DNA of 64,000 nucleotides, from the NCBI GenBank assembly GCA_030062745.1, contig CP099840.1:2108001-2172000 (forward strand). The letters are read 5' to 3'. Origin of the DNA: Capitulum mitella. Its lineage: Eukaryota; Arthropoda; Thecostraca; Pollicipedomorpha; Pollicipedidae. Each line of letters opens with the position of its first letter. The first letter of the stretch is position 1. A model generated the notes under the pieces. The model was not told the origin of the DNA and ran no database searches. It saw only the letters and a list, made by a program, of their open reading frames with translations. Position numbers and translations under genes: made by a program. This document shows positions 1,301 through 34,400 of this stretch, piece by piece.

Positions 1301-4300
1301 GCAAGTGGACGCGAGTGCTAGAGCCACGATGGCAATAATGTGTGGTCTGATGGTTTTGCGCCATTCTGGAAGTGCAAATCGCTGGCCACTGGTTTCCGGC
1401 GTCTTCGCTCTTTCGTGTGGACGTTGACGTCAGGACAGCTATTCCGAGCTGGGGTTCGTCGCTAAGTCTTACGCTCTGGGGCTTCACTGAGAAAGATCTC
1501 TTTCAGCTTAATTGAATGCCCCGCGCATCAATGAAAATCCAGGCTTTGTTATACGAGAGCTTTTCGTCACGAAGAGGGACGTAAATCCTTTCGTATAATC
1601 GAGTTGGATAATGAATGAGACACTTAGTGGAGTGGAAACTTGAAAAAAGGGACGCTGAGGAATTAAAACATTGTTTCGGTGTTGATATGATTTGTTGCTA
1701 CACCATTAATATTTGTTGTTCGAAATTTGGCATAACTTGTTTCAGTCATGTGAGTTTGCAGATGGTCTTTTTTATTTCTTTAACCCTATTCCCAGAGGGC
1801 TAGACAGTATGGTCGATTCCCGGCAGAGGGCGGACTCGGCCCCCCCTGAGATCTCGAAAACTACACATCCGATTTCATCGCAACAAACGGCAATCGATTG
1901 GCCATAACGTGAACTACATTTTTTAGAAAAAAATCAAAATTTTGAAAGATGTGGATGCAGGGGGCAAAAATATCAAAATGGGCGTATTTTTGGACTTCTT
2001 ATAACTCCGTTGTTTATGGACCGATTTTGATGGAACTGGCATGAATCGAGAAATTATGGATAGGACTTTTGGCATTGGTACACACGTCTGAAATTTTGGG
2101 AAAATTCATGGGCGTTCACAGGGTTTCAAAAATAGGAGGATTAGTTCTCTAACAACTAAATGAACAAAAAAGGCAAAAACACTTTCGGCTTCTGCTAGTC
2201 ATGTTATGCTAAAGAAGTACAAATCACATTACAATGTTTGTATAATGTTAGCATAGGCGGTGCCAGGGACATGGAAAGGGGGGAACTGTCATGGTCACAC
2301 GTTCTTCAGATCAATTTGTGACCTTTGACCTTAAATGACCTCCAGTGACCTTGGAACCACTTGGAATAACCTCGTGTGCATTTAATATTATCTGTTAACG
2401 TTTTCAATCATTTGAATTCACTCTATTTCAAAAAGTTCATTTTACCGCTATCGCGATATAGGGTACGTACGCGCACTGACATTTTAGGTCATAGCTCCGT
2501 GACCCGACCTGATATCAAGCTGAAACTTGAAACACAAGTAGTGGGCGCCTTGTTACGTCATATATATTCCGGGTTTGGCTTTGGAAAAAAACAGCGCCAA
2601 AATTATTGCAAAAAAACAAAGTTTGACTTTTGACCTTTACCTGACCGTGTAAAGTGACCTCAGACAAATAAAATTACATCTGCAAATTGCCCAGTTATTT
2701 GGCTATTCATCCATATAAAGTTTTAAGTTCTATCTTAAAAACACTGTTTTGGGCAGACATTTTCATTTTCCCCTCAACATGGCCAAAACGGCCTGAGGTG
2801 CCTCCCAAAAACGTTGCCTGGCTCCGCCCCTGAGAAAAATGGAATTTTGAAATTTTGTCACGGCTTGTATAAAGAATAACTAGGAAAAGTCACCAACTTT
2901 CGTAAAGCTGCGTCAAAAAGCCTGGAATTGGCAAGCAAAAAGCCCGAGGGAGGGCGAATTCAGCCCCCCCTGCCGGGAATAGGGTTAAACAATACCGACC
3001 TGAAGGCATTATGAAATGTTTCATCAAAACGACATCTCCTTAACAAATTGCTGACCTTCAACAAACGCTGCATACTATTGAGGGTGTTTGTTTGTCGGCT
3101 AGCAGCAAATTACCGACGTCGTAACTTGAGATTTGGTCCCCATTACGCACCGTGTTCCCCGTGCTGCTCGATTGCATTTTGATACGCCCATTAAAACCCT
3201 GGCTTCCATGTGTCCATCGGTATATGCAATATTTTTGTCGTCCTATTTTAGATGCCTGGACCCGGTTCCGTCATTGCAGTTGCAACTAACGTTTACATTT
3301 ATTTTATTCCTGCACCATTTGATGAAGATTTATCTATTATCAACAAGAAACGAATAGCCATGATCCGGATCCACTAAGCGAAGAAACGTTGCTTTTGTCC
3401 CCGCCTTCGTAAGATGGCCTGGTGGCCGCCGGATCCCACTCAGGCTGCTCGAGCCTCCTCCAGTCGCTGAAATCTAACCGCGTCATTTTGACGGCCCCTC
3501 TCCGGAAGATGACTCCCATTGTTTCTGGGGCGATCTGCATAGCTGCCCGCGCTAACGCTATTTTGCAAAGGAGGTCTCGGTCGTGCCTGAAGCAATTAGT
3601 GGTGGGATCGGTTGGTCGCCCCGCTCCGCCGGTTCGCTGTCAGCTCCGGTCGATGACGCGCCGCTGGGCGCGCGCGGCTCACTGGGACCATTCGGGACCG
3701 TCTGGCTTCGTAGCGACCGCCACTCGACTCTGGCTGCGAGGGCCTCGATTACGAGCCGCGTTTTCGTAGCGAAAGCAGAGTCCGTTTTTACGAGCGTTAT
3801 TTAGCTGACGGGGTGCCGGTCGGCCCGCTTTGGAGAGCTTGTCGGTACAGCCATGCTCGGTACCGTCAGCGGGATTGCTTCGTTTCCAACATCCCCAGAC
3901 AGTAAACGGGGATTTTCTTTGGTCGCCAGGAATACGTTTTTCTTGCATCAGCCGCGTTTCCAAACGTGGAATTCCGATTGCGTCTAGGTGTGTGACGATC
4001 ATTGAAGTCCAGTAATCTGTATGTATCAGACAAACGTCTGTCGGTACTCATTGCTGTCACTAATGTATTACCGAAACTCATTAAGTACGGCATATGCTTG
4101 TATGTTATAGGTTATTTGAATTTGGCCAGGAGACAACCAAAATTTATGGTCGGCGTCACTAATTCATGCTCTAGTAAAGGTCACCAGTTTGAACCGCCGC
4201 CAGATGGCCCACGGATCCATTCACGTCTTCAGCAAAGGCCACCATCTTAACAGAAATTGCCCTCACTTTACATCATTTATGGGGTCAAGATTACGAAAGT

Positions 4301-7300
4301 TATTTTCTGAGCGGCACATTCAGAATCAATAGGACTCAGAGGTTTTCTTTGGAGTCATGAGATGCTTGAGTAGAGACGAATGTTGAGCTGCAGTCAATGG
4401 AATGATCAGGCGATCAAACAATAAATGATAAGAACCATCGTATATATTTCCGGGTAATCGTTAATTTAAGAAATGCGTGTTTTATCGTGGATAAAGTGGC
4501 GTATCAAGTTGGGATGGCGTTAATACCATATGATTATAAATGTGTGACCTGGAATTTGTGACCTGTGATGACCCAATAGGCTGTCAAAAGGGTCACATGT
4601 TAATCTGTATTGCTATTGTAGCATGCCATACCATGTAGCATGCAACATACCAACCTCTTGCAACACATTTGCAGAAATGGATTCCATTAACGTGAAAAGA
4701 AAACAATCGCAGTCGTTATCTTTGTGACGTCATTGTTACATGAGCGTCAGTTTTTTGCTGCCAGTTTTTATATTTCACACGTTCCCGACTGTTAAGTGTA
4801 AAAAACAGAAAAACCTCAGACAGAAAAACCTCAGGGGAGGGGCAGGGGGCTGACTGCCCCCCTGAGGTTTTTCTGGGATTACGAGACAACCAACAAACAC
4901 AGAGTCACGAAACTTTGTGTACCTTTTGCTTCCTCAATTTTACATTTCATGTCAAAATTTTGGCCTCAGGTCAGGTCAGGTGCCTGACCTAAGTCAGGTC
5001 AAACGGACCTATGTCCACAAAAGTTTAGCCCTCTCTAACTTTTTTGCAAAACAAGATATCTCAATAATACTTTCCGGGATTAGTGATCGTGATAGATGTA
5101 ACAAATCTGCTATCCCAGATTTTTCGGAATTTTCCAGATCATTGACCTAAGATCAAGCCCATTTTTAAGACATGTCGCCGTTTTTTTCGGAAATTGACGG
5201 AATATTTTATAACATTTTTAGTGTGGAGTCAATCAAACATCTAGTTACCGTCATTGGGCAAAGTATCAGTGACTTCCAGCCATTGACCTGAGGTCAGGTC
5301 ACGAATAACTGTAGTGAACCAAAATGTACCACCGTCAAAATCGACGATGAATTACTCAGAATGGGTAGAAAATGGCAGAAGTAGCTTGCACAGACGTAAA
5401 TGATATCAGGAACCTCAAAAGATTTGAAAAAGTAGCATATTTTGGAAATAAACAGGCTCTTGCGAATAAAGTTCCGCCAACTTTGCAGACTGGTAACTAA
5501 TCAATTTTTCCAAAATTTAACCATGAGAAACCATCACAAGAACCACAGAGATCAATAAAATTTACATAGATTGTCTTTTTTGCGAAAATAAAGGAACGCT
5601 AAAATTAGTTCCCGTCAATTTGCTACCGCATGCAGCAGTGCAACACCGACAGCTGGCGGGAGAATTGTCGTGTCTTTAACTCAACGTTTCGGCGTATATA
5701 TTGGACAAATCTGAGAAATTAGATGTGTATCGGCATCCGCGGACCTGTACTTGTGCGCTGGTGCCTTTACCTATGCGTTATTAGTCACAGCCCTTGAGAT
5801 CCAGGCCATTCAGTCTCATGCAGTCGGGTATGAGAAAACATATATAGGACGTAAATTGGCTTATATATTATCTAAAACTAAAATGAGACCACTTTCGATC
5901 TCTACTCGTCACAAGCTTTCCAGCGGTGTGCTTATTTTTATCGTGCGACCAACCGTTCGTGAGTTAGAGGGGGACAGCCAACTGCCCCCCCCCCCCAGTC
6001 GCCCATGTTCGAAACGGACCGACGGTCGTGCGCGGGTTAAGCGTGCAGACAGGATACAGGAAAAGGCACGAAAATTCCAGGTCATTGCGTTTGTTTGTTT
6101 TTGAGCTATAACGAGAATTTCGCGAGGGACAGTATTTGCATCCCCCACTTAATGACGGGTGAATGTTTAATCCCCGCCGGAGGAAATGAGCTCAACTTCC
6201 GGCTTTGGAGTATGTATTTTTCAGCGTAAAATTGATCTTGCGGAAATTGAGACTCTGCTTTTTCTAAGAGCAGAACAATGGTGTTTAAACATACAGCAAC
6301 GGTGCGAGTCCGATCTCAAATTCCTAGAAATGAGTGACCATTCTATACACAAACAAGCGCTTTAAGAGTGGTTTGTGTATGGCCTCGTGTTCGGCGTTGT
6401 GGTGTGTCTACGTGACCGCTCGCGTGCCGCTCTACGACATTCCACACGGTCTCAGCCGGAACTGTACGCCGCGGGTCGGTCTGGCGCCGCTGCTGCCGGT
6501 TTACTGGGTCAGAAAATAGCCCGCCTCCTGGTGCGCTGGCTCAGAAAATAGCCCGGCCCCGCCGGCGGATCGTAAACTCGGGGAAAAATCCAAAATACCC
6601 TGACCATCGAGGCCAGCTTAATGTCACTATCTAATGACGGTTGTGCGTCACTGTTCATGTTCCTGTCCAGCGCTGTGATGCTGGTATTTTCGCACCCGGA
6701 TGCCCGCCATCCGAGTCTGTGATTCCTTACGATAATCGCCTCTGATTGGATCCCAGTCGTCCCATGTGGATAGTCAGTAGATCGTCATTGAAAGCATGTT
6801 ATCGGCATTCATGTGCGCGGACTTTGTACATGGTACCGATTTGAAACACTTTCCTTGCGAGCAGTGCCCGTCTTGCTTCCTGCTTGTAACTTTCGTCTCT
6901 CGCCATGATCCGTATCAGATAACCCAGTAAAACATTTATTCGGTTTCTTGAAAGGCGGCGCACAACTCGCAACGGAAACACGAGTGAATAAAGTTTGTTC
7001 GCACTAAGGCAGCAGCCTTACGTACGGCCGAGACGCCTGAACGCGACGTTCACGCCGTCCCGGGCCCATTTCAGACATGGTGACAATCCTGGCGTCGCTG
7101 GTCGTGCTGGGCCTGGGTTCCGGCGTGCTGGGCCTGGGCACCGGCGGGCAGGTGTTCGCCACATCAGCGCTGCGCGTGCTGCGCTTCTTCCAGATCCTGC
7201 GCATGGTGCGCATGGACCGGCGCGGCGGCACGTGGAAACTGCTCGGCTCCGTGGTGTACGCGCACAGACAGGTGAGGCGCCGTGGTGTCGCCTCGTGCGG

Positions 7301-10300
7301 GAATGCTCTCCGTTTGCCACGTGGGCCGTGCGTCAGGCCCAGCAAAGCGGTGCCCATAGGTCTGGGGGTCAATGCGGTGGCTTTGCCGCCAACTGCTTGG
7401 CGCTGGGGAAGTCTCCAAGGAAGTAAAAGATGCAGGAATACGTGAGGTGGTTCCTGCGAGAGATCCAAGTTAGTTTTCAAGATGACTTTTGAAACCAGCC
7501 GGCAATTCTCATACTTTCCCTCATAACTCTGAGTGGTTCGGAGAGCGCTAGAATGGCTAATGCCTTTGAGGCTGTTTTTCAAGCTGGTTCAACTTTTCGG
7601 CTTTCATTTACCTGTAGAAATAATGCCCTCTGATGCACCGGATTCTGATCTTTTCATCTGTGAGATGTCCATTGTACTTAGCTTTACACCAATATGAGCA
7701 CCCACTGTATGCTGGCAACACTGTGTCCATGCTCATACCTCGCTGCTTTTTTCAGGAGCTCATCACAACATATTACATTGGGTTTTTAGGTCTCATCGTC
7801 GCCTCATTTCTTGTCTACCTAGCTGAGAAGGACCTGAATGGGAATCAGTTTTCTTCATTCGCCGACGCTTTATGGTGGGGCGTTGTAAGTGCAAAGTTTG
7901 CTGCTTTAATCTGATTCCTCGGTTTCGTCATATTGGTTGCGAACGATTTCATGGTTTGTGTGCAGTGTGCTGAAGTATGTAATGGCCTCCAAAAATGCCT
8001 TGATTGAATGCTATGTTCAGCGCTTATCAAACGTGCCTCACGATTTGATGCCATTTACTTATACCAGAAATTAAGGATAACCAGGGTTTTTCACAGGCTG
8101 TTAAATTTAAACATTCATTAATCTTATATTTGCGCAAGAGGCCAGCGTAGTTTAAGAATTATGGAACGATTTTGATTTCTTTGATTATTCTTAGACGTGT
8201 TCCCATCTGTTGTTAGCTGTACCATAAAATGTCAAGCAATGCTCACCAGCTTATCGTTGTGCTGAATGGTCGTTCCATGCAACACCAGTATATTTAAGCA
8301 TAATGTTTTGTTCCCAGGTGACGCTTTGTACTGTTGGTTACGGTGATGTCGTCCCCAAAACATGGAAGGGAAAACTCACCTCATCAGCATGTGCCTTACT
8401 AGGAATATCGTTTTTCGCCCTTCCAGCGGTGAGTAGACCATCCCCACGAGGAAGCAGAGAACGCCGTCCGATGATAGGGATGACAGGATGGCGGGTGAGA
8501 TGAAGGATAGGTTTCTGAGGGAAGGAAGTTACAGCGGAATCGACAAAACGATTTCCGTAATCGACCACCGGCCATTTTTTTGGGGAAATGCCGGGAAAGG
8601 AAAGAGCAAAGAGCTGTAGTCATCTACGTTTTTCATGATCACGGTCTTTGATCAACGGCTGACGTCCTCCGCCATTGCGCCATCCTTTTTTTGATGTGTT
8701 AATTCTTCTTCCGAAGGTATTAGGCGATAAGGACAGTGGTCAGTGCTGTTATTGGATTTCATTTCGTTAACCTGTCGATCATTAGCAGATCAGTTCCTGG
8801 AGATATGGACATTGGACATGACAACATGCAATACTCATGAATCAGAGTCAGTCGTAAAGGTTGTCTGGTATTGCTGATACTTATCCGGTTGGAACATATT
8901 CGCGATAATTGCTATTGACGTTACATAAAGGAACTGCACTACCATCTCATGGAGGCGAGGTTATTGTAGCGTGCAAATGATCTAGCAGTGTTGTTGTGTT
9001 CACTTTAGGACTTGATGAAATAGCCTTCAGTTCTAGCCGTTGAGTTTGTGTCTGCGTGCACGCGTGCGTGTGCGTGCGTGCGTGCGTGTGCGTGTGCGTA
9101 TGCGTGTGCGTATACGTGTGCGTGCGCGGTCGCAGGTGCGTGTGCATGTGCGTGTGCGCGCGAGCGTCCGTGCGTGCGGGCGGGCGGGCGCGCGCGCGAG
9201 TGCGCACCTTTTTAGCGTACTGAAAGTAGAGTGATTACGAGCTTAGTCGGTTAGAGCGTTGGTCTCCCCGTTGGGTTCGAACGGTCTCGGCGCTTCATAT
9301 TTCGACCGCGGGTGATCTGGCAACTGGTCATCGTAGGGTCAAGCTGACTACCGTTTACCTGCCTTCTGCCAACCATGGAGTGACTGCCGTTACTAGATCG
9401 TGTCACACCCTTGGCGGCGCGTTGAACTTTCGCCCAAAATCAGCTGTTACCTGGAACTGATCGATGGGGTTTGTAGGGGTCGGAATCTGTGCACATGCTT
9501 ATGTTGGGTTTCATGTTGTGGTTCAGGCTTAGCCTTGAACCCCGACATCACCCCAGCAACCGATCCTACCAAGTCTATAAAACAGTAATGTCCCACGATG
9601 TGATGTGGTAAATATAGATATTTCATTCGTTTCTTCGTTTGCTCTATGCAACTGGAATGGATATGCCAATACCTTCCTAGCCTAATGACATACCATTCCA
9701 CGTTTTTGTCGTTCCGGACACATTTCATCATATCATTTCCTAAAATTCCTCGCCGTTCGCGAACAGCTACAGAACGGCACATTCCACCGGTCCAGAAATA
9801 GGCGTCCGCAGTGAGGCGCGTCATGTTCCGGCGCCCGAGCCGGGTGATTTCGGCGCCGTCTGCGGCCTTAATCACGCGGCCCCGCCGCCGCCGCCGCCGC
9901 GGGCGGTCGCCGGGCGACGCGGCCTGCCGCCGCCGACGGCGGCCGCTGATCACCTGTCTGCGGTCTGGCCGCGGCCGAATCCGAGCCGTCGGCGACGGTC
10001 CGGCCCGCCGCGGCCGGCCATCAATCATGCCCTGTCACCGGCCGGCCCGGGCCTCGTTAACTGGGCCCGGCGTCGCCGGCGGCGTGGGCCGACTTACTGA
10101 ACCGCCGCGTGAAATCAATACGCCGGCAATGCGGCTGCCCCGTCGATGGGGACCGAGCTGTCACAGGCTCATCGGTCGCCCGGAGGGCGGCGATGCTTTT
10201 GCGTCGGCAGCGACGTCTTTTCAAGCGCCGCCGGCTTGCCTCGACGATTTGTTGCGTCAGGCTACCAGCCATAGGCGTCGGCAGAAGGCAGATCGAAGCA

Positions 10301-13300
10301 CAAGAGATTTTTTGTGGCAAAAACATGACCATGCTTTTTAAGACTTAGGTGCCTGCGAGATAGATTTATGAAAAGTTTCTGATGCAGAGCTCGCAAGTTT
10401 CCAGGTGGTTCCACATTTCGGCGCCCCAATTCGGACATGAATCGGGCGCCGAAAGGTCATTTCGTTTGCTAAGTTAATTCTTGGGTAGTGCGCGTGTTTC
10501 GAAGCTGAAAGAAAACCCAAGCGTCGTGGGCCTTAAGTACACAAAATTCAGTTTCCTACTTTCCCGAGACATAGTTCTAGAGCAAGCTTGGAAAAAGCTT
10601 CCTTTCCATTAATCATTTTGCGCCTTTCTTGTACTGTAAAGTGTGTATCGTGAGCTTGGTAGCGCGAATACAAATGAATAAGTCATTTACCGAGTGGGCG
10701 AGCACGTAAGTACTCTAACGCTTATGTCCCTTCAGAAAACGATGTCGTGAGTATGCGATTTCTTTGTGACGTAAAAAGGCTAATGTGGATGCTACCAGTT
10801 ACGCAGATACCACGGATGTTTGTTTCATTGCTTCCAGAGGTCGACGAGGGATCGGTGTATATCACGACAAGGAATTAAGCGTAGGCTCAACGTGGTCCTC
10901 CCCCCAGTCCACGTCATTCGGGAAACTGAACTTTGTCTTAGTTTGCACATATGACTGGGCCAAAGAAATACGAGCATGGCCTTTCTGTGGCTCTAACTGC
11001 ACAAGGACAGGGCAGAATGACACGCGAGTCAACGTATTTTCCCCCAGGGAAATGCCTACCTTTCCTCGTTATTGTGTCAGAAACGTTACCAATGTGATGT
11101 TGATTTGTTGCCAAAAAATTGGAACAACTGCCCCAGTTGTTACGTCACGCTGGTGTATCGTGGAACAGATTCAGGTCCGGTTACCACCCAGACGACTGTG
11201 ACTCTAAAAGCAGACGGCCTTCACATATGAGTGAAGAGCAGTGTTAGGCAGCCAGGCTATGCCATAACTTTCACCTCTCGAACTCGACCGCACACCACGT
11301 CCGCTATTCAGATCATACATTCCAAGCATATTGATCGGAAAAGGATGTCACAGTCCATCAGGGACGGATGGTTGTTCGCGGATAACGGGTCAGGCTGCAG
11401 CTCCTACGGTTTTGCGGCACATTGCGCAGAGTCATCGGACCGGATTTTAAGACCTTGAACAGTCGCTTTACGTCTGCACGAAGTAAAATGGTTTGATGAA
11501 ATGTGGCCGTATCTTGTAAGTTTGCTGGAGACCAGCAAGCTGTGAGTTTGACCAGTCTGGTAAACTTTATTGGAGCTGAGAACTCGTAATTCTGTCGTCA
11601 TCAAAAGCCATGGTATGCCATTGCTATCCTATTTTTGTGTTGCTTTCTGAGAGGGTGACCAAGTCGTTGTCAAAGGCTTCCAAAACAGGTGGTTTTGAAA
11701 TTATAGTAAACCTTATTTTAAACTATGTCTAGGTTTTTTCGTGTGGCTTTTCTTCGGAGCACGTCATAATTAGCCCCTAGTCGGTTTGAACAAATCGTCA
11801 TCGTAAATCAGTGCATTTCCAGGGATGTTTAGTGCAGCTTACTAGCTTACGAAGAAGCCTGCAATCCAAGGAGGCGCTTCGAGAGCGGCATCAGGCTAAA
11901 CTTTCGCTGGCCGACACACGATGTCATCGCCTGGTCGACGACAGGGCCCGGAGGACAACGCGTTTGGCCTCGCTAAAGCAGTGGTCGTCCACAGTGTGAA
12001 ACCGTTCTCGGAATATTGACTAGAAACACCACTGACCCGCCTCGGTCCCCGTGAATGGCATTCCTAACGTCGCCCCCACGTGCGCACCCACCTGACGTAT
12101 TCTCGCGCGCCGGCAGGGCATCCTGGGCTCGGGCCTGGCGCTGAAGGTGCAGCAGCAGCAGAGGCAGAAGCACATGATCCGGCGCCGGCACCCTGCCGCC
12201 ATCCTCATCCAGTGTCTGTGGCGCTGTTACGCGGCTGACGAGCACTCGCTCTCGGTGGCCACCTGGCGGATACACCAGGTGCCCTACCCCAGTCCGCCCA
12301 CGTGAGTTGTCCGGTCGGCGGGAGCCAGCGGCGGCCGGCGGGAGGGCCATAGCTGCTGTCAGAGCACCGCAGGTCTCTGGGTGGTGTCATGAACGTGTGC
12401 GTACCGGAGCAGGTCGCTATCGTTTGTGGGGTGTACATGTATGGTGTTCTGTGCTTTTGCCTTGATTGTTGCATAGTATTCCGTTCATTTGCGCTCTTCG
12501 TTTTTTTTGCACTTGTCGCCACGTGCACCGCAGTGTTTAATGGTGGTTTCGGTTGCTGGTCTCTTATGGTTTTGACAGTACATTACATATTTCATTTGCA
12601 CACATTGACACGCACACAATGACCCTGGCACACGAACCACATTTCTCACCGAAGAAAAAAACAGCGGTGAGAAAGATGGTTTTTCAGGTGCGCTGTGGTA
12701 CACTTATGGCATCAAATACTCATCGGAATACTCATCGGTCAGAAAACAACCAAAGTGTAGAGCCTGATGTGGTAAAAGTCTGCACGGCACCAGCCCTAAA
12801 AACGTCTGCATGTAGCTAAGGAATCAAAAGCGTTCAGTCCTAAAGCGAAGACGGTGCTACCTTCACGTGGTTTATTTCGTTATGTGCGTTTATGTAGCTG
12901 CATTGTGATGTTTTTTATTTATGAGAGGCGAGAGACAAAGACGGTCAGAATTTTGGTTTAAAACTGAGGTCCGTAATGCTCCAAAAAATGGGCTATTTTC
13001 AGGCTTTGGTCTGATTTTCCGCAATTGTTTGCTTTCAATCAGTGTCTGTTTTTACCTTTTTCTTGATTTTCATGCTACAATAGATGTGAAGCGAAGCAGA
13101 TATTTAACCTGTTGTACCAAAGTACATTCCATTCTCCCGGAATCGAACTTCTTCCCTCTTTTCTTCTGAGAACACTCACCAGCCACACCAAAGGCAGATC
13201 CGCACAAAAACGTTTGCTAGTGAGCTGATATCCAATGCGCATAGTAACATGCATAATAATGGAACATGCTTCGCTTTCTGTTTGTTTTCGTTTGCAGACG

Positions 13301-25300: not shown

Positions 25301-28300
25301 CTGGGGTGTATCGGCATGCCGTTGGAAAAAATATGTCGATCCAGGTTGTGGTTTGGATATCCAGAATTGGTGTTGTGTAAACAGCATCAGGCGGTACTCG
25401 CCATCAGTATGGCAGTATTTGCGAAGTTGGTGAGGTCAGAACTATTTTTGGTCGGTTTCTTTCCATGCAACATCATAAGCGTAGGAGTAGAAATGGGTTT
25501 TATTCTCTCCCGGGTTTTTGGTATGATTGCGGAAACAGCTTTCCTTGCGTCAGGAGAGGCTGGGTTTCAGATGTATAATATATGTATTAATATATGACTC
25601 AAAGTTTCTGTTCCAGGACCTCTCACTGTATGGATCCGAAACGATGAGTCAAATTGCAATGCACATGTTTCACGTGGAAAGCTAGGAATTCTTGACAAAA
25701 GCAATGCCCTTTTCTTCGTAATCATGGCAACACCGTAGACATAATGTTAGAGTTATCCGAAGTTGGTAGGATCGTCACTTTACCTGACCCAGGGGGTGCT
25801 ACGCATGCACCCAGCAAAGAAACATTTGAAGTATTTCAGCTGACGCACTATCAAACGTATCAGCAGACATCACACAGGTGACGTCACTACTGTGACCCCT
25901 GCGGTGATCTTGGGTGACCTCTGCGACGTCACCTGTTGCAGACGAGGAGGAGGAGGTGCAGCCGCGGGTGACTCAGCTCACCACGCAGCACAAGAACGCC
26001 ATCCGCGCCCTCAGGAAGGTCAGTGGACGAGTGGGCTCACGAACGAAGCTCCCGTCGGTATTTCGCCCATTCCGTGGCCCAAATCACTGCATAGAAGTGT
26101 CTGTACACACCATCTTCATGGAACACTGATTGGTTGGAATGGATGTCTAGGTGACTGGATTTACGAAGACATCACAACGTAATACGTCTTGTTACAATAC
26201 TACTACAATACTACTACAATTACTACACGTAATACGACGTCTTGATAGTATCAGATGGTTAAGAAAAAAACGGATTTCATTGTTTTTGGCAAGGATTGAG
26301 CCCTAAGTGGCGCAACCAGTCGGGATTTAAGACCCGAAGGCCAGAGATATTTGATGTGCTCGATGCTTCTCCCCGGACAAAATCATACCGCCTACGTTTC
26401 TCGTCCGTTGCTGCGCGCACAACGGGTAACGCAGCCACGAGATATTTGGGTACGTGTGTTCCACAGCCGTTGTTGTTCAGATGCCGCATATGTCTAGCAC
26501 ATCATAATAATCATAGCTCACGAGACCCTATTTAGTTTACTGCATTCCTAACTTTTAATAATGGTGATTTGCACGTGCTCAGTAAATTTCCACTTACGCG
26601 CGCGTTTTCACAAACGTTGCATTGTGCATAGCTCGGAGCGGACCGTGAAACAGAGGCGGAACAATCCACCGAAATATCATTACATAGTGCTTTTCTTAAT
26701 GGTGTGGGGGCAAGACGTCCTCTGTCCCGCACTGTGCGGCAATGACTGCTAGTGTTGTCAGTTAAACGAAAATAATTATACGAAAGATGACTTGGCCTAA
26801 GAGCTTAATCCCGGCGCCCTTGCCGCTGGACTGCAAGTGGGGATGCTCACTGTGCGTAGCATGAATATCAGGCAAATCCTTCAAATGCCGTACCGTTTAA
26901 CTATACTTCGCACTGGATTAAAACTTCTTCCATATTTAGTGTTGCGTCTCCTTATTTGTTTCTTTTTTAAATGAATCTGGCCCGAACTATCGTTCTGCAA
27001 GGGTGATTTTAGGGATTGGACGAGATGCTACGCAGAGCTTATTTGTTGCTCAAATGCAGTGAATCACTCGTGTGGTTTGCTGTCCGTCAGTCATCGTCCT
27101 AGGTTCAACAGCGTGTCGGCCATTTTCTTCGGTAGTCGCCCCCTGGTCTGCCTGAATTTATAGACGCTCTGGCCGTGTCCATCCGCTTATCGACCTCCCG
27201 TTCTTCAAAAGCTTTTAATTTCAGAATTTGGGTACGAGTATTTAACCGGAGTATCAGAATTTGTATTGTCCTGGGTACCATTAGGGGCTCTCAAATGGTC
27301 CGTTCCCGAGTTTCATCCATGTAACGGCTCCATGGCGGCTTTCTGAGTTTATGGAGGTCTCGAGCTTCCTCGGAGTGACTGCCCGTGATGAACAGTTTCA
27401 CAGTTCGTAATGTTGTTACTGTAGGGGAAATGGGACGGCTTCTGCGAACGCCAGAACCAAGTTTTCTTCTCACGCCATGACAGCTATTGCATCTGACTCT
27501 GCTTATCCGAATTTTATATTATCACACCAAGGGAAGGCCCACGGAGCAAACGTTTCCGTTTCCATCGAGTCCTGTTAAAAATGGTATTGATCGCTTAGCC
27601 TTTGACGCAATGTCTCAGAAATGGGCGTTTTTTCGTGCAAAGGCTTGCCACCCATCCTCAGTTGCCGCACCACTGCGTATGGCCCATCTTTTTCAGAAGT
27701 CATAAATAGACTTGTGGTTGAGCGTGAAGTAAGTAAGCTGAGAACCCGTCTTAAGTAATTATGGCAACGTCCTTTTGTGGTATATTATATCATAAACAGC
27801 GTAACGCTCGTCGAAAGTGACACAGGGTTTATGAAACGATGATCTGATGTGGTTCCTCAGCCTTACATTTACGCTTCGTTAACGCCGATTTTACCCTTTC
27901 ATCCGTTAGATAAAGTTTTTCGTAGCACGACGGAAGTTTCGTGAGGCTCTTAAGCCTTACGACGTTAAGGACGTTATTGAGCAGTACAGCGTCGGCCACG
28001 TGGACCTTATCAGCAGGGTCAAGGCTCTCCACTCCAGGTAGCGACCTCACTGCATGCGCGGGTGTATTTTGGTGTCGTTGCACGCTGCCGTAGGCGTCGC
28101 TCTAACTCTCCTGTCTTTTTCAGTCAGAGCTGGGTCTGTCTGCTCGTGTGTCGTGCTGTGCTGCTGGATCTGTCGCGCCTCTGTGCCGTAACCCCTCCGG
28201 AGCTATTCACACGCATCCTTTCCTGCCACGGGTCAGGTCCTGTGGTCTTTGACGTCGTGCCACGTCTATGTTTGCAGATAAAATTCCTAGTGGCTAAAAA

Positions 28301-31282
28301 GAAGTTTAAGGAGGCTCTGAAGCCTTACGATGTCAAGGATGTGATTGAGCAGTACTCCCAGGGACACACTGATCTGCTGGCGAGAGTGCGAGCGCTGCAT
28401 TCAAGGTAATCGCTGGGAGCCAACAGGAAACACCGCAAAACAGCCAGCCCGGCCATGGCAGGTCGCCCTCCTCGTGACGGTTATCAGGCCACGCATCAGG
28501 AGCAGAAAAAAACAGTTATGGGAATATTGGACAGCTTATTGTTTTAAATATTTTTGGCTTTGACCGTTATTTCGGAGGTTAAAACCAAAATTGTCCTGAT
28601 TAGCCTCGCTGAAGTAAATGGGCCAACACAACATGCTCTGGGGCCGTCCACAAATTATGTAATGCTGGGATGAAGGGGCGGGGGAGGAGGCGGGGAGCTG
28701 GCCAAGGCGTGACAAATCGTCACGACGAGGAGAGGGGGGGGGGGCTTTGGCACAGCGTTAAATAACCCTGCCACATCAAGGGAGAAAAGAACCTTGCAGC
28801 GTAAAAAGACATAAAGAGTCCTTTATGGCAAATCTTGCGATTCCAGTTTCTGTTTATGGACGATAGTAAACTAAAATAAGTGGTGCGCGATTCAGAATGT
28901 CAGGACTGACAAGCTGTGGTGTCTGCTGAGTGTCACGTAATTTTGGGAGTCGGGGTTTTGGCTGCCCGTTTCGTAGCGTTACAGGGGGTGGGAACGTTAA
29001 AAAGGAAAATGCGGCACATAATTTATGGACGGCCCTCGTTTGATAACAAACGCTACATTTTGTCATATTTTGTAGACAGTAATCCGTGGGAAAATCTGAA
29101 ACTGATTTATCCTAGACGACATTGGCAGGTTGATCGCTCTTCAACTCTTCCTACCGGAAATCAAAAGAAGGATTAGTTCTCAAAGAATTTCATCAAATCG
29201 CGTGTTGCTTCTACGCGACCTGACCTTAGAGCTGGATTCGGCGATTGGACAAAAACTGGGGAGCATCAGCGCTTTGAGGAATTTTCCCCACGCCAAGCTA
29301 TAGGCGTAAGGTCTAATCCGGTGAAAAATGAAAAAGGTGACGTGTTTCTGCGGCCCGAATCTGGCGGTGTCCATGCCTTTAACTGCAGCCTTTGCTTATG
29401 GAACTGCGGCAGAGGGTTTCATTTGACTCTCCGAAGAGTGGCGGACAGTGGGAATTACCACCACCAATCGCCAAGTCCGAACCAATGAAGCAATTTTAGA
29501 CATTCTCATGACCCGTGATGGAATGCTTTACCAGTTATCGTTTTCCCGTCTCTGCCATGGTCCACATGATTACTTTTGGTTGTTACGATCTGAAATGTGG
29601 TCATTCACGTACCTCCTTCGATAACTTAGGTGGCACTATCCTAAGGAGGTTTCTTGGTAAAACCACGGGGGCTTTAAAGTTGTACAGGTTAATCGCTGAC
29701 ACTCAAACGAAGCGACGCCTGACCTACAGTTTGTAAGAAGTAAAAAGAGAAGAGCATGCCCCACTTTCGAAAGGAAATAAAATATTCAAGAGTCAGGCAA
29801 CCCATTTGCGAGAGAAAAGGTATAGCGGGAGCGATAAAAAACAATGGCAACTTTCGAGCGGTGGCCTTTTACCACATACCTCATAAGGAACACGACACCC
29901 ACATTCCTAGCATCGTTCTTTCATGTGTGAAAAGCACTAATGTTTATCACACCACTGAAAACAACCAGGCTGTTGTTAACTATTTGTCTACTAGAATTAT
30001 GGGCGCACCGATTCCACGGCCACATGGCGCCCAAAACAACCAGGCTAGCAAATTATGTGTGTAGAAAGGCAGTGTTACCGCGCATTTAGACCCTAATGTT
30101 CGAGTACTGGAGTGCTGTTTTGGTAAGTGGTCAAGCTGTTACCGTAAGCGAACGACGAGCCTCGGCTGCTCGTGGCGGTCACTCTCCCAAAACAGGTTAG
30201 TCCCGCGGACCCCGCTTTTGCAGGGTTTCGGAATGGTTAACGCCTGTCGCCTTGTAAGCTAATACGAGCCGTGCATGTGGGAAGGGCCGAACTCTGACCG
30301 GTGGCTTGCGATGTTGTAGGGCTTACATCGATCGTGCATGCATATGCTGAAGAAACGTCCAGTGTATTTGTGTGCATGCATATGTGTGGAAGTGAGGCGG
30401 TGGATGTGGCCTAATTTCTCTGTCCTGTGTTTGGCCACTATGGCAGACGCTGTTTGGTTAGTATTTTAAACTGACGAGAAACGTTTCCATTAAACGAGCT
30501 GTCTTTAGGAAACATGATGCAGTGCAATTTCAAGTATTTACGCAGGGTGACGGTATTATCAGAATGGCAGTGTAAATTTCGCCATTGATCAGTCGCTAGA
30601 AAAGACCAATGTGTTAAGTTACCTCGCGAGCATCATTTTACGTTGTGACGTATAGATCAGTAGTTAACGATAGAACTGCGTCGCATCCTACAATGTTGTC
30701 AGCAGAGTAACTGTGTTCCGCCAGACGGTGCCGATTGTTATTCCGTGCCTCGCCCCGTTAGCCTAGGCTCTGTGTTATGATATGCGCCGTGGCCGTTTTC
30801 AGCATCGCACCTTGCCCCGCAGGGTGGACGTCATACTGGGAAAGCAGGGCTCGAAGGCTCGGGACGTGTACGACTCAAAAATCAGCCTCGCTTCCAGAGT
30901 GGTGAAAGTGGAGCGGCAGGTAAATGGACCGGGCGCCAGCGGGACGGGCTGGCCACGAGGCGCACCGTTGCTTCGCGCGATCGACAGGGGTGGAAATCGC
31001 GCCACCGCCTTTCGTCGCGTAACGCGAGGGATTAGACTGAGATCCGAGGCTGCCGTCCGCCGCCCGCGCTGGCGGCGTTGCGCAAGAGGTCCTGCTCGCG
31101 GCTGGCGCCGCACAGATGGTGATCGCAGTGGGAGCCAGGTGCTCAGGTCGGGTCGATGACGGGAATACGGGCGACCGAGGCCGGCGGGGGGTTAATATCT
31201 AGACGGCCGCCGGGCACGTGCGGCACTCGTCTTCTGTGAGCAGCACACGAGGCGTCCGGTGCATATTGCAGGCGTTGAGGTC

Positions 31283-31488: not shown

Positions 31489-34400
31489 AAGAGAGAGAGA
31501 GAGAGGAGGGAAAAGGAGAGGGGGACTGAGGGCAATGGAGGCAAAAAGAGGAGCGAGAGTAACTGAGTTCACCATTCCATATAGACCTGTTTAGTAAAAA
31601 GACATCTCTGGGATGATTTTTTCCGAGTTTTTGCAAGCCAGTATTTGCCATCGCAAAACACTTCGTTGCTTCTAAAGCTGTTTAGCTTTTGCATTTAAGG
31701 ATTTATCCATTTCCTAACTGATGCATTCTGAGTGCGTTTCCAGAGTGTTTGCGGTTGAGATTCAACGTTAATTCATGAAAAGGGAAACAACGTTCCACCG
31801 CCTCACGGCACTGTGGTCCGCCGGCAGGTGGAGGACATCGAGACGAAGCTGGACCAGCTGCTGGAGATGTACGTGGAGGACCGGCGGCGGCTGCAGGCGG
31901 TGCTGCCGCCGTCGCCGCCGCCGCAGCCGCCGCCGGGCCGCGCCGAGCCGGCGCCGTCGCCTTCGCCGGCGGACAGTCCGCCGGTGCAGCCGCCCGGCTG
32001 CTTCCCGCTGCCCGGGCCCATGCCCAAGTCGATCCTGGTCGACAAGCAAGCGTCCGAGCCGACCACGCCCATCTACAAGCAGCAGCGGCTGCCGTTCATC
32101 GCGCGCGGCAACAGCGACGTGGCGCAGCGGGTCAAGAAGAAGGTCACGCTCAGGTCAGCCGCTCGCTCGCCGCCGCCGCCGGCCGCCGGCCGCGCTGGCG
32201 GCGATCTTTTCACAAAGGGTTTGGCGTTTTGTTGGAGGGACAGCAAGAGTTGGAATTGCCATCTACGTCAAATGCCCATTTTGTTTTTGTTTTTGTGGGA
32301 ATGAGGATGCGATCGACTGGGTGGCGCCGACTGGCAGCCGGTCTCAGACGGGAGTTTAATAAGACGATCTTTCTTTGCTTCAGAACATTATTGACTCCTA
32401 GCATGCGTGAAATGGCAGCTGAGTGGATTCGTTTTTCATCGCCACAGTGTGATTGAGAATAAGAAGCTGGCCTTAAATTTCCACGGATTCCTCATCGATG
32501 TAAAATCGCATGTAGAATCTGAAGCATGGCGTTTAGTATTTCCAGGTCTGTTTAGGTACGGTTTCGACCACATTTTAAGCATCTTGAGTCTGCTCGACTC
32601 TCGGCCCCTTGACAAACTCAGCCTTGGAATTTGTCAGTCAATAACAATTAACCACCTGCATTCATCGCAGGCCATCGCCACATTGCTTCTTAAAAGCAAC
32701 ATCCTAGTGCGCTTGAAGAGAAACGAAACACGAGGACGCATTTCCATGCCTAAAAGCGAACCTCGTCTGGGAATGGGTACGTTTCGTGAAAATGGCGTTT
32801 GCAGGATCATATTTCAGTACCCATTCAAGACCGCTTTGTTGCATTCCTACTTAAACCCAGTATCCAGCACCGCGTGCGTTTTATTTGTAATGGCCTCCGC
32901 TGTCAGCAAGATAACACGGACACACCAGCCCGTTAAGTTCGCGTACAAGATATTCACAGGCTGTCATTTTCAACAGGAAGAGGTACGACTCTTTCTAGTC
33001 AAATGATTGTTTGCATCACACCAACGACCTGCCTTGCTTATTTTATCCAGCAGTCAGTTTAAATGAGTATATTGGCTTTGTACCATGGTTGTCAGGGTCA
33101 CGAAAAGAGGAGGAATGAGGTTTTGGCAGAATTTGAAACGATTTTTCCAAGCAATGCTGTACGACTAATGCCAAAAACGAGCGAAAAATGGGGTATCGTT
33201 CCCCGACTCACTCGTTGCTCGTCCTCTGTAATTGACATGTCGGCACTGTAAAAACAACAGTATGGTAGCAGGTTTATTTCACGTTTTTGCGAAACCCCTT
33301 TTTAACATCTCATTTGGATATCAGTCACATCTGTTGACTTCCACAGATGTGAAAATATTGAGGTTATGTGCCAAGTTATTCCATGCGAACCACCGTTGCG
33401 AATGAATATAACAAGCGAGGCTGTTTCTCCACGCACTTTCTCCGGCAACGACCAGCGTTGGTTTATCAGAAAACCTCGGCAAATCTGTAACTCTCAGTGA
33501 GTCCATGCATTCGCTTCTGTCACATGCCGCATTGGGAATGCCATATAGTCTCCGAAAGGTCAATTCCTGTTTCAATAAGCTGCCATAAGAACAGACACGC
33601 CCCGAACCATGAATTCCTGTTTCAGCAAGCTGCCGCAAAAACAGACACATTTCCGGCGCCTCGAGGCATTGATCTAATTAGTTTGCATTCAGCGAGAACT
33701 CGATACACTGAGGAAGAAAAAGGATCTATGACGCCGGCTCCATTGAGTCATGAGCACGGGCCCCGGATTCAGGTCACCATAACCGCGCCTGCGAGACGCC
33801 CAGCAGGAACCCCTGAACGGAGAAAGCCAGCACCGGAGGCTCTCCGATGTCGCCGCTCACGGCGCATTCGATATCCGGCGAGTCTCTGGTCCAGGCAGAC
33901 CTCAAAGCAGCCTTCCGAGAAGCGCCGGGCTTGCGGCGAGCTGCATTTAGCCCGCTGCGAATCGGCGTCAGGCGAAGAGGGGGCGTTTATTCGCTTTGAT
34001 AAGTCCTGGAACGCTTCAGTACGGGTCTGGAGCGCCAGCCTGCGAACTTCGGCGACAGTCCGGAATGCGAGCGTTTCCCTTTCCGTCCGCTGCTGCGATT
34101 CGGTGAACCGCCTGATCAGCGCGTTGTGGGCGAATCCTTCCCAGGGTTCAAAGCGCTCAACTTTCCATGAAACGTTCACGTCAGGTTTAAGCGTTGCCTT
34201 GATCCACGTAATTGGTTTGGACCGTTCATAAGCAGATTTTCAGGGCTTGCAACTCATGTCAACCGCTACAAAAGTTGTAAACTGAGCCGTGCAAGCAGCT
34301 CATTAGAGATCTGCGAAAGTTTTTTTTCGGACAGCAGACCGGGTACCAGAGAACCGTATGCGCCCCGTGACTAATCTAGACACAACTATCACCGCCTTGA

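What the first reader, a model, noticed from the sequence alone, without database searches (positions are those of the whole stretch)
27910..28405. Two tandem, mutually exclusive helix B exons in KCNQ
Two 128-bp exons with identical phases (0 in, 2 out), 240 bp apart, encode alternative versions of the calmodulin-binding helix B. They share 34 of 43 residues and keep the [12 protein letters not shown] core. Splicing A to B creates an immediate TAA, and skipping both shifts the frame, so exactly one must be used. The changes (RRK-FR versus KKK-FK; V/Q, V/T, I/L, S/A) fall in helix B and the start of helix C and could tune calmodulin, PIP2 or assembly behaviour. I know of no description of this arrangement.
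Basis: partly seen in the sequence, partly recalled or inferred. Interest (0 to 1): 0.88.

Follow-up and report, generated by a model that had tools for sequence, protein, structure and literature searches.

The report
Swappable calmodulin-binding exons in KCNQ channel
A potassium-channel gene in what looks like a barnacle carries two side-by-side versions of the exon for its calmodulin-binding helix, apparently built so that only one can be used at a time; it is a plausible new case of a splicing trick known from other channels, but no RNA data were available to prove it.

Summary
A KCNQ2-5-type (Kv7) gene carries two adjacent 128-nt exons, A (27910-28037) and B (28278-28405), with the same phases. 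Both encode helix B and the start of helix C. They share 33 of 42 residues but only 85 of 128 bases; silent change far exceeds amino-acid change (pS 0.85, pN 0.19), so both copies have long been under constraint. Splicing A to B gives an immediate TAA; skipping both shifts the frame. Best reading: mutually exclusive exons giving two channel isoforms. No transcripts could be examined, so exclusivity is inferred. The genome (477 Mb, 16 contigs) fits a stalked barnacle such as Capitulum mitella. Two KCNQ1-like paralogues show no second copy. Two of three residues of the basic PIP2/calmodulin cluster known in Kv7.1/Kv7.2 differ (Arg against Lys), but charge is kept. The less conservative changes come after the unchanged core, probably in the B-C turn and helix C, so altered coupling or assembly is at least as likely as altered calmodulin binding. 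Mutually exclusive exons are well known in other voltage-gated channels; my searches found none described for KCNQ.

The parts
27910..28037 (+). Exon A: helix B and start of helix C, version [42 protein letters not shown]; acceptor ...CGTTAG, donor CAG|GTAGCG
   Evidence: PF03520 hit; PDB KCNQ hits of the joined exons
28278..28405 (+). Exon B: version [42 protein letters not shown]; acceptor ...TTGCAG, donor AAG|GTAATC
   Evidence: PF03520 hit; PDB KCNQ hits of the joined exons
28038..28277 (+). 240-nt intron between A and B; TTGAC branch-point-like site 26 nt before exon B
25942..26018 (+). Upstream constant exon (...[15 protein letters not shown]), ends in phase 0
30823..30919 (+). Downstream constant exon, helix C ([32 protein letters not shown])
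31825..31881 (+). Helix D-like stretch ([16 protein letters not shown]...); exon borders not determined
   Evidence: pattern match; helix D assignment recalled
12108..12275 (+). Exon with end of S6 and helix A ([41 protein letters not shown]...); borders approximate
8306..8428 (+). Pore exon ([15 protein letters not shown]...FFALPA); borders approximate
7753..7890 (+). S5 and turret exon ([28 protein letters not shown]...); borders approximate
7146..7271 (+). S4 exon ([42 protein letters not shown]); KCNQ2-5 type by its S4 residues (recalled criterion)

Best explanation
This is a KCNQ2-5-type potassium channel gene, probably of a thoracican barnacle, in which the exon for helix B (calmodulin and PIP2 site) and the start of helix C was duplicated in tandem long ago. 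Both copies have been kept by selection. Each mRNA uses A or B; transcripts with both carry an immediate stop and transcripts with neither are out of frame, so only single-choice mRNAs make channels. Shown here: sequence, frames, splice dinucleotides, constraint on both copies, no second copy found at the two paralogues. Inferred: exclusive use, regulated choice (tissue or stage) and functional difference. The likeliest effect is fine tuning of how the calmodulin/PIP2 fork couples to helix C and subunit packing, with calmodulin binding retained in both isoforms.
For: Same length, phase and framing. A+B splice yields AGA-TAA, skipping shifts the frame. pS 24.5/28.8 = 0.85 against pN 18.5/97.2 = 0.19; Fisher on rounded counts about 4e-10: both copies constrained. 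The 100-nt intron flanks are not alike (0.23 and 0.26 identity), so the pair is not a recent or assembly duplicate. By a simple home-made score both acceptors lie at the 98.1 and 93.7 percentile of AGs, and by a recalled matrix both donors at the 95.0 and 98.5 percentile of GTs, in 26019-30822. A and B agree with each other against both the PDB KCNQ4 and KCNQ5 chains at 8 of 42 positions (A alone matches one of those chains at 2, B alone at 4), pointing to duplication after the split from the vertebrate line. Codons 7-9 correspond to Kv7.1 526KKK528 / Kv7.2 524KRK526, a PIP2-binding basic cluster (PMC6161613, passages; alignment by motif). A sharp turn follows helix B and helix C forms a loose four-subunit bundle (PMC7072864, passages).
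Against: No RNA evidence of either exon. No second species could be examined. Donor A is the weakest of the four donors scored (1.29 against 3.59, 4.42 and 5.17). Net charge is +4 for both exons. The Kv7.2 mutation shown to lower calmodulin binding and PIP2 affinity (K526N) is at the third cluster residue, which is Lys in both A and B, so that result does not bear directly on the A/B difference. No intronic pairing stood out from shuffles, and a 240-nt intron should be long enough to splice (recalled), so the mechanism of exclusion is open.
Confidence: 0.83

Rival explanations
1. One exon is the working one and the other is a decaying relic or a poison exon whose inclusion lowers expression.
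For: Including both gives an immediate stop, which could be used for down-regulation; donor A is weak; no transcripts to show either exon in use.
Against: Both copies keep reading frame, splice dinucleotides and 33 of 42 residues despite heavy silent change; a long-standing relic would be expected to lose these. A poison role alone would not preserve the helix B protein sequence.
Confidence: 0.1
2. The two exons belong to transcripts with different ends, or are not strictly exclusive, rather than being a regulated either/or pair.
For: Splicing order and exclusivity were not observed; no RNA structure that would force exclusivity was found.
Against: Equal length and phase and constant exons on both sides fit an internal either/or pair best.
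Confidence: 0.06
3. Assembly artefact or allelic duplication.
For: Tandem copies can arise from misassembly in general.
Against: Only 85 of 128 bases and 17 of 42 third positions identical, unlike intron flanks.
Confidence: 0.01

Closest known systems
Mutually exclusive tandem-duplicated exons in voltage-gated channels (cacophony, Ca-alpha1D, Ca-alpha1T, para, slowpoke, NALCN, human CACNA1 genes)
   Same: Tandem homologous exons substituting a short conserved region of an ion channel; one cacophony case also swaps a conserved interaction helix while keeping contact residues (PMC9741552 section 16, read in full).
   Different: Different gene family (KCNQ) and region (calmodulin/PIP2 helix B). 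'KCNQ' has 0 occurrences in that survey's main text; its supplements were not available.
Vertebrate KCNQ2 and KCNQ4 splice variants (KCNQ4 v1-v4, exon 9)
   Same: Alternative splicing of KCNQ genes; KCNQ4 variants differ in electrophysiology (PMC10018040 passages), KCNQ2 variants differ in the C-terminus (PMC8209339 passages).
   Different: No pair of homologous helix B exons is described in the passages seen.
Solved KCNQ helix B chains (4GOW, KCNQ4; cryo-EM chains of KCNQ2, 4, 5 and others)
   Same: Both versions align without gaps to the 4GOW chain over 55 residues (alignment shown).
   Different: Each deposited chain has a single version of helix B; none equals A or B in the alignments shown.

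Membership tests
Tandem-duplicated mutually exclusive exons | Adjacent homologous internal exons of equal length and phase | tested here: met
   128 nt each, phase 0/2, 33 of 42 aa
Tandem-duplicated mutually exclusive exons | Double inclusion or double skipping is non-productive | tested here: met
   A+B gives TAA; skipping shifts the frame (by translation only)
Tandem-duplicated mutually exclusive exons | Both copies under purifying selection | tested here: met
   pS 0.85, pN 0.19 between copies in one genome; not tested across species
Tandem-duplicated mutually exclusive exons | Transcripts contain one or the other, not both | not testable with these tools
   No RNA data
Tandem-duplicated mutually exclusive exons | Conserved pair in related species | not testable with these tools
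   No other animal genomes held
RNA-structure (docking/selector) class of exclusive splicing | Competing long-range intronic pairings stronger than chance | tested here: inconclusive
   28 of 30, 13 of 30 and 2 of 12 shuffles were as strong or stronger; only about 600 nt of each flanking intron, one species
KCNQ (Kv7) channel, KCNQ2-5 type | S4, GYGD pore, helix A, PF03520 helix B region and helix C in order on one strand | tested here: met
KCNQ (Kv7) channel, KCNQ2-5 type | Closer to KCNQ2-5 than KCNQ1 | tested here: met
   Best PDB chains are KCNQ4/KCNQ5 (2-3e-20), then KCNQ2 (about 2-3e-17); KCNQ3 and KCNQ1 lower
Thoracican barnacle genome | About 460-510 Mb in 16 chromosomes (Capitulum mitella) | tested here: inconclusive
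   477,042,490 bases in 16 contigs; C. mitella 463-483 Mb, 16 chromosomes, 512 Mb; P. pollicipes, 770 Mb with 17 large scaffolds, fits less well; no species marker compared

The most novel reading that the evidence does not exclude
An arthropod lineage has turned the KCNQ calmodulin/PIP2 helix B and B-C turn into a splice-selected module: one M-type channel gene makes two channel kinds that integrate calcium, PIP2 and assembly differently, by tissue or by larval versus sessile adult life, in a genome where the KCNQ1-like gene instead exists as two separate genes.
Probability: 0.3. Interest if true: 0.6.

Novelty: new member of a known kind. Interest (0 to 1): 0.4.

Why it matters
KCNQ channels set excitability, and helix B is where calmodulin and PIP2 meet; human mutations in or beside it cause epilepsy (PMC6161613) and, from recall, long QT syndrome. 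A natural pair of helix B versions, kept for a long time in one gene, shows which positions can change while the channel presumably still works, and offers two ready-made variants for testing how the B-C turn couples calmodulin and PIP2 to gating. It would also add KCNQ to the channel families with exon-swap diversity.

Tried and rejected
Assembly or allelic artefact: rejected on divergence and unlike intron flanks. A third helix B copy: none seen between 26019 and 30822 at E up to 50, and four matches in the whole genome, two of them A and B (only best candidates are scored). Other tandem coding duplications in the window: in a self-comparison of 1685 open frames of 25 aa or more at E up to 1e-3, eight rows came back: the A/B pair, its antisense, and six others, of which one is a same-strand pair (44584-44880 and 44792-44932, 24 aa) that also matches on the other strand, so repeat-like. 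Exons shorter than 25 aa could not show.

Dating A/B against the barnacle genome duplication: abandoned. Four-fold sites differ at 11 of 13 for A/B, 33 of 104 for C4/C5 over five exon pieces, but 24 of 55 for the window gene against C4 over four pieces, although that split should be far older (recalled); silent sites are near a ceiling, so only 'old' can be said. Fisher p: A/B against C4/C5 0.0004, A/B against window-C4 0.012, C4/C5 against window-C4 0.16.

RNA-structure control of exclusivity: no signal. Pfam scan of ten long open frames out of 138 listed: 0 of 10 with a hit. PDB search with the upstream exon gave no hit, but I gave it one base out of frame, so it says nothing. The acceptor row for the upstream exon used a wrong coordinate (25931 instead of 25942) and is disregarded. 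The donor matrix is recalled and approximate; the acceptor score is home-made. One search timed out with nothing printed. One search stopped on an error after printing the exons used here. The output was cut in its C4/C5 part. Structure prediction was not run: without calmodulin it would not separate the isoforms.

Papers: ten searches. Seven bore on KCNQ exon pairs or invertebrate KCNQ (17, 19, 20, 39, 49, 50, 54); no listed title or abstract start described such a pair. Listings were partial for (25 of 161 papers; 15 of 66). Only open-licence papers are searched and supplements were not available, so Drosophila and RefSeq isoform lists were not checked.

Full report
What is there. Between constant exons at 25942-26018 and 30823-30919 lie two 128-nt exons, A at 27910-28037 and B at 28278-28405, separated by 240 nt. 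Both start in phase 0 and end in phase 2. They encode [42 protein letters not shown] and [42 protein letters not shown], identical at 33 of 42 residues, differing at codons 4, 7, 8, 11, 28, 31, 34, 35 and 38. In a script, A or B alone gives a continuous frame into helix C; A plus B gives ...ALHSR followed by TAA; skipping both shifts the frame.

Which gene. The same strand carries S4, S5, a TVGYGD pore, S6 end with helix A, helix B and helix C in order, and a helix D-like stretch near 31825 (assignment recalled). The joined helix B-C region matches PDB chains of KCNQ4 and KCNQ5 best (2-3e-20), then KCNQ2, with KCNQ3 and KCNQ1 chains lower. The genome search found two other KCNQ helix B regions, on C4 and C5. 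I call these genes KCNQ1-like from their S4 residues (recalled criterion; sequences). Each has one helix B match and no tandem partner in the 60 kb (C4) and 50 kb (C5) read around them. There the boundary that begins exons A and B is not an intron: RAIRK-IKYF is read continuously.

Which organism. 477,042,490 bases in 16 contigs fits the stalked barnacle Capitulum mitella (463 Mb of contigs, 483 Mb of scaffolds, 16 chromosomes, PMC8416341 passages; 512 Mb and an ancient genome duplication, PMC11331182 passages) better than Pollicipes pollicipes (770 Mb, PMC8917513 passages). The C4/C5 pair could be one of those retained duplicates; synteny was not tested. Two crabs also have a KCNQ1 and a KCNQ2 transcript (PMC5096308 passages). 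The species is an inference from size, contig number and gene content only.

More than chance, and old. Between A and B, 24.5 of 28.8 silent sites but only 18.5 of 97.2 amino-acid-changing sites differ (Fisher on rounded counts about 4e-10). Third positions agree at 17 of 42, first and second at 32 and 34 of 42; intron flanks show no similarity. So both copies have been held by selection for a long time. A and B agree with each other against both PDB KCNQ4 and KCNQ5 chains at 8 positions, while A alone matches one of those chains at 2 and B alone at 4; the duplication therefore probably post-dates the split from the vertebrate line. It cannot be dated further: silent sites are near a ceiling even between the window gene and C4 (24 of 55 four-fold sites differ), and the C4/C5 pair (33 of 104) is not clearly below that (p 0.16). 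As a protein yardstick over the same 38 codons, C4 and C5 are identical at 38, A and B at 29, so A and B differ a lot for this helix.

Splicing. Both exons have acceptors near the top of the local AGs by a home-made score, with branch-point-like sites, and donors at the 95.0 and 98.5 percentile of local GTs by a recalled matrix; donor A is the weakest of four. The 240-nt intron should leave room for splicing A to B (recalled), so steric exclusion is unlikely. Intronic pairings did not stand out from shuffled sequence (28 of 30, 13 of 30 and 2 of 12 shuffles as strong or stronger; about 600 nt of each flanking intron and the whole middle intron). I therefore take exclusivity to come from regulators not visible here, backed by loss of double-inclusion transcripts through the early stop. 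This step is inference.

What the swap would do. Codons 7-9 correspond by motif to the Kv7.1 526KKK528 / Kv7.2 524KRK526 basic cluster, where a PIP2 site has been placed (PMC6161613 passages); PIP2 and the calmodulin N-lobe compete at helix B (PMC7072864 passages). A has RRK-FR and B has KKK-FK, so charge is kept (net +4 for both whole exons). The Kv7.2 K526N change that lowered calmodulin binding and PIP2 affinity in PMC6161613 is at the third cluster residue, Lys in both A and B; it shows that the site matters, not that A and B differ there. The core [12 protein letters not shown] is unchanged. The changes V/Q, V/T, I/L, S/A and K/R come after it, which I place in the B-C turn and the start of helix C (not tested on a structure here), where the chain turns sharply and the four subunits bundle (PMC7072864). 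My reading is that both isoforms bind calmodulin and differ mainly in how that complex couples to helix C and assembly, with a possible smaller effect on PIP2 through the Arg/Lys exchange.

Known or new. Tandem exon swaps are frequent in voltage-gated channels: a survey counts them in 4 of 14 human and 5 of 13 Drosophila families and discusses CaV, NaV, Slo and NALCN cases (PMC9741552 section 16). 'KCNQ' does not occur in its main text, nor in that of the human mutually exclusive exon survey (PMC5740500). KCNQ4 and KCNQ2 have other splice variants. In searches no listed title or abstract start described a KCNQ helix B pair; two of these listings showed only part of the papers found. So this is, as far as I could see, a new member of a well-known kind, at a well-studied regulatory site. 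Genome databases may already carry it unremarked as predicted isoforms; that could not be checked.

Noticed in passing
window 1710-3040; C4 about 7172954-7174281; several places in the C5 stretch: A dispersed DNA element, probably inside a KCNQ intron, matching the C4 and C5 stretches in several reading frames, often at 65-95%; looks like a repeat or degenerate mobile element.
   Followed up: no
G000:C4 near 7166472 and G000:C5 near 27836480 (L001, L003): Two KCNQ1-like genes identical over 50 of 50 helix B residues and 42 of 42 S4 residues, possibly retained copies from the barnacle genome duplication; synteny not tested.
   Followed up: partly
window 27910-28035 against 28278-28403: Silent divergence between the tandem exons (11 of 13 four-fold sites) exceeds that between the window gene and its C4 paralogue (24 of 55), Fisher p 0.012; small numbers, could reflect splicing signals or avoidance of gene conversion.
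   Followed up: partly
window 44579-44932: Short self-similar stretch, seen on both strands in the window self-comparison (24 aa at 67% on +, 43 aa at 42% on -); probably a local DNA repeat.
   Followed up: no
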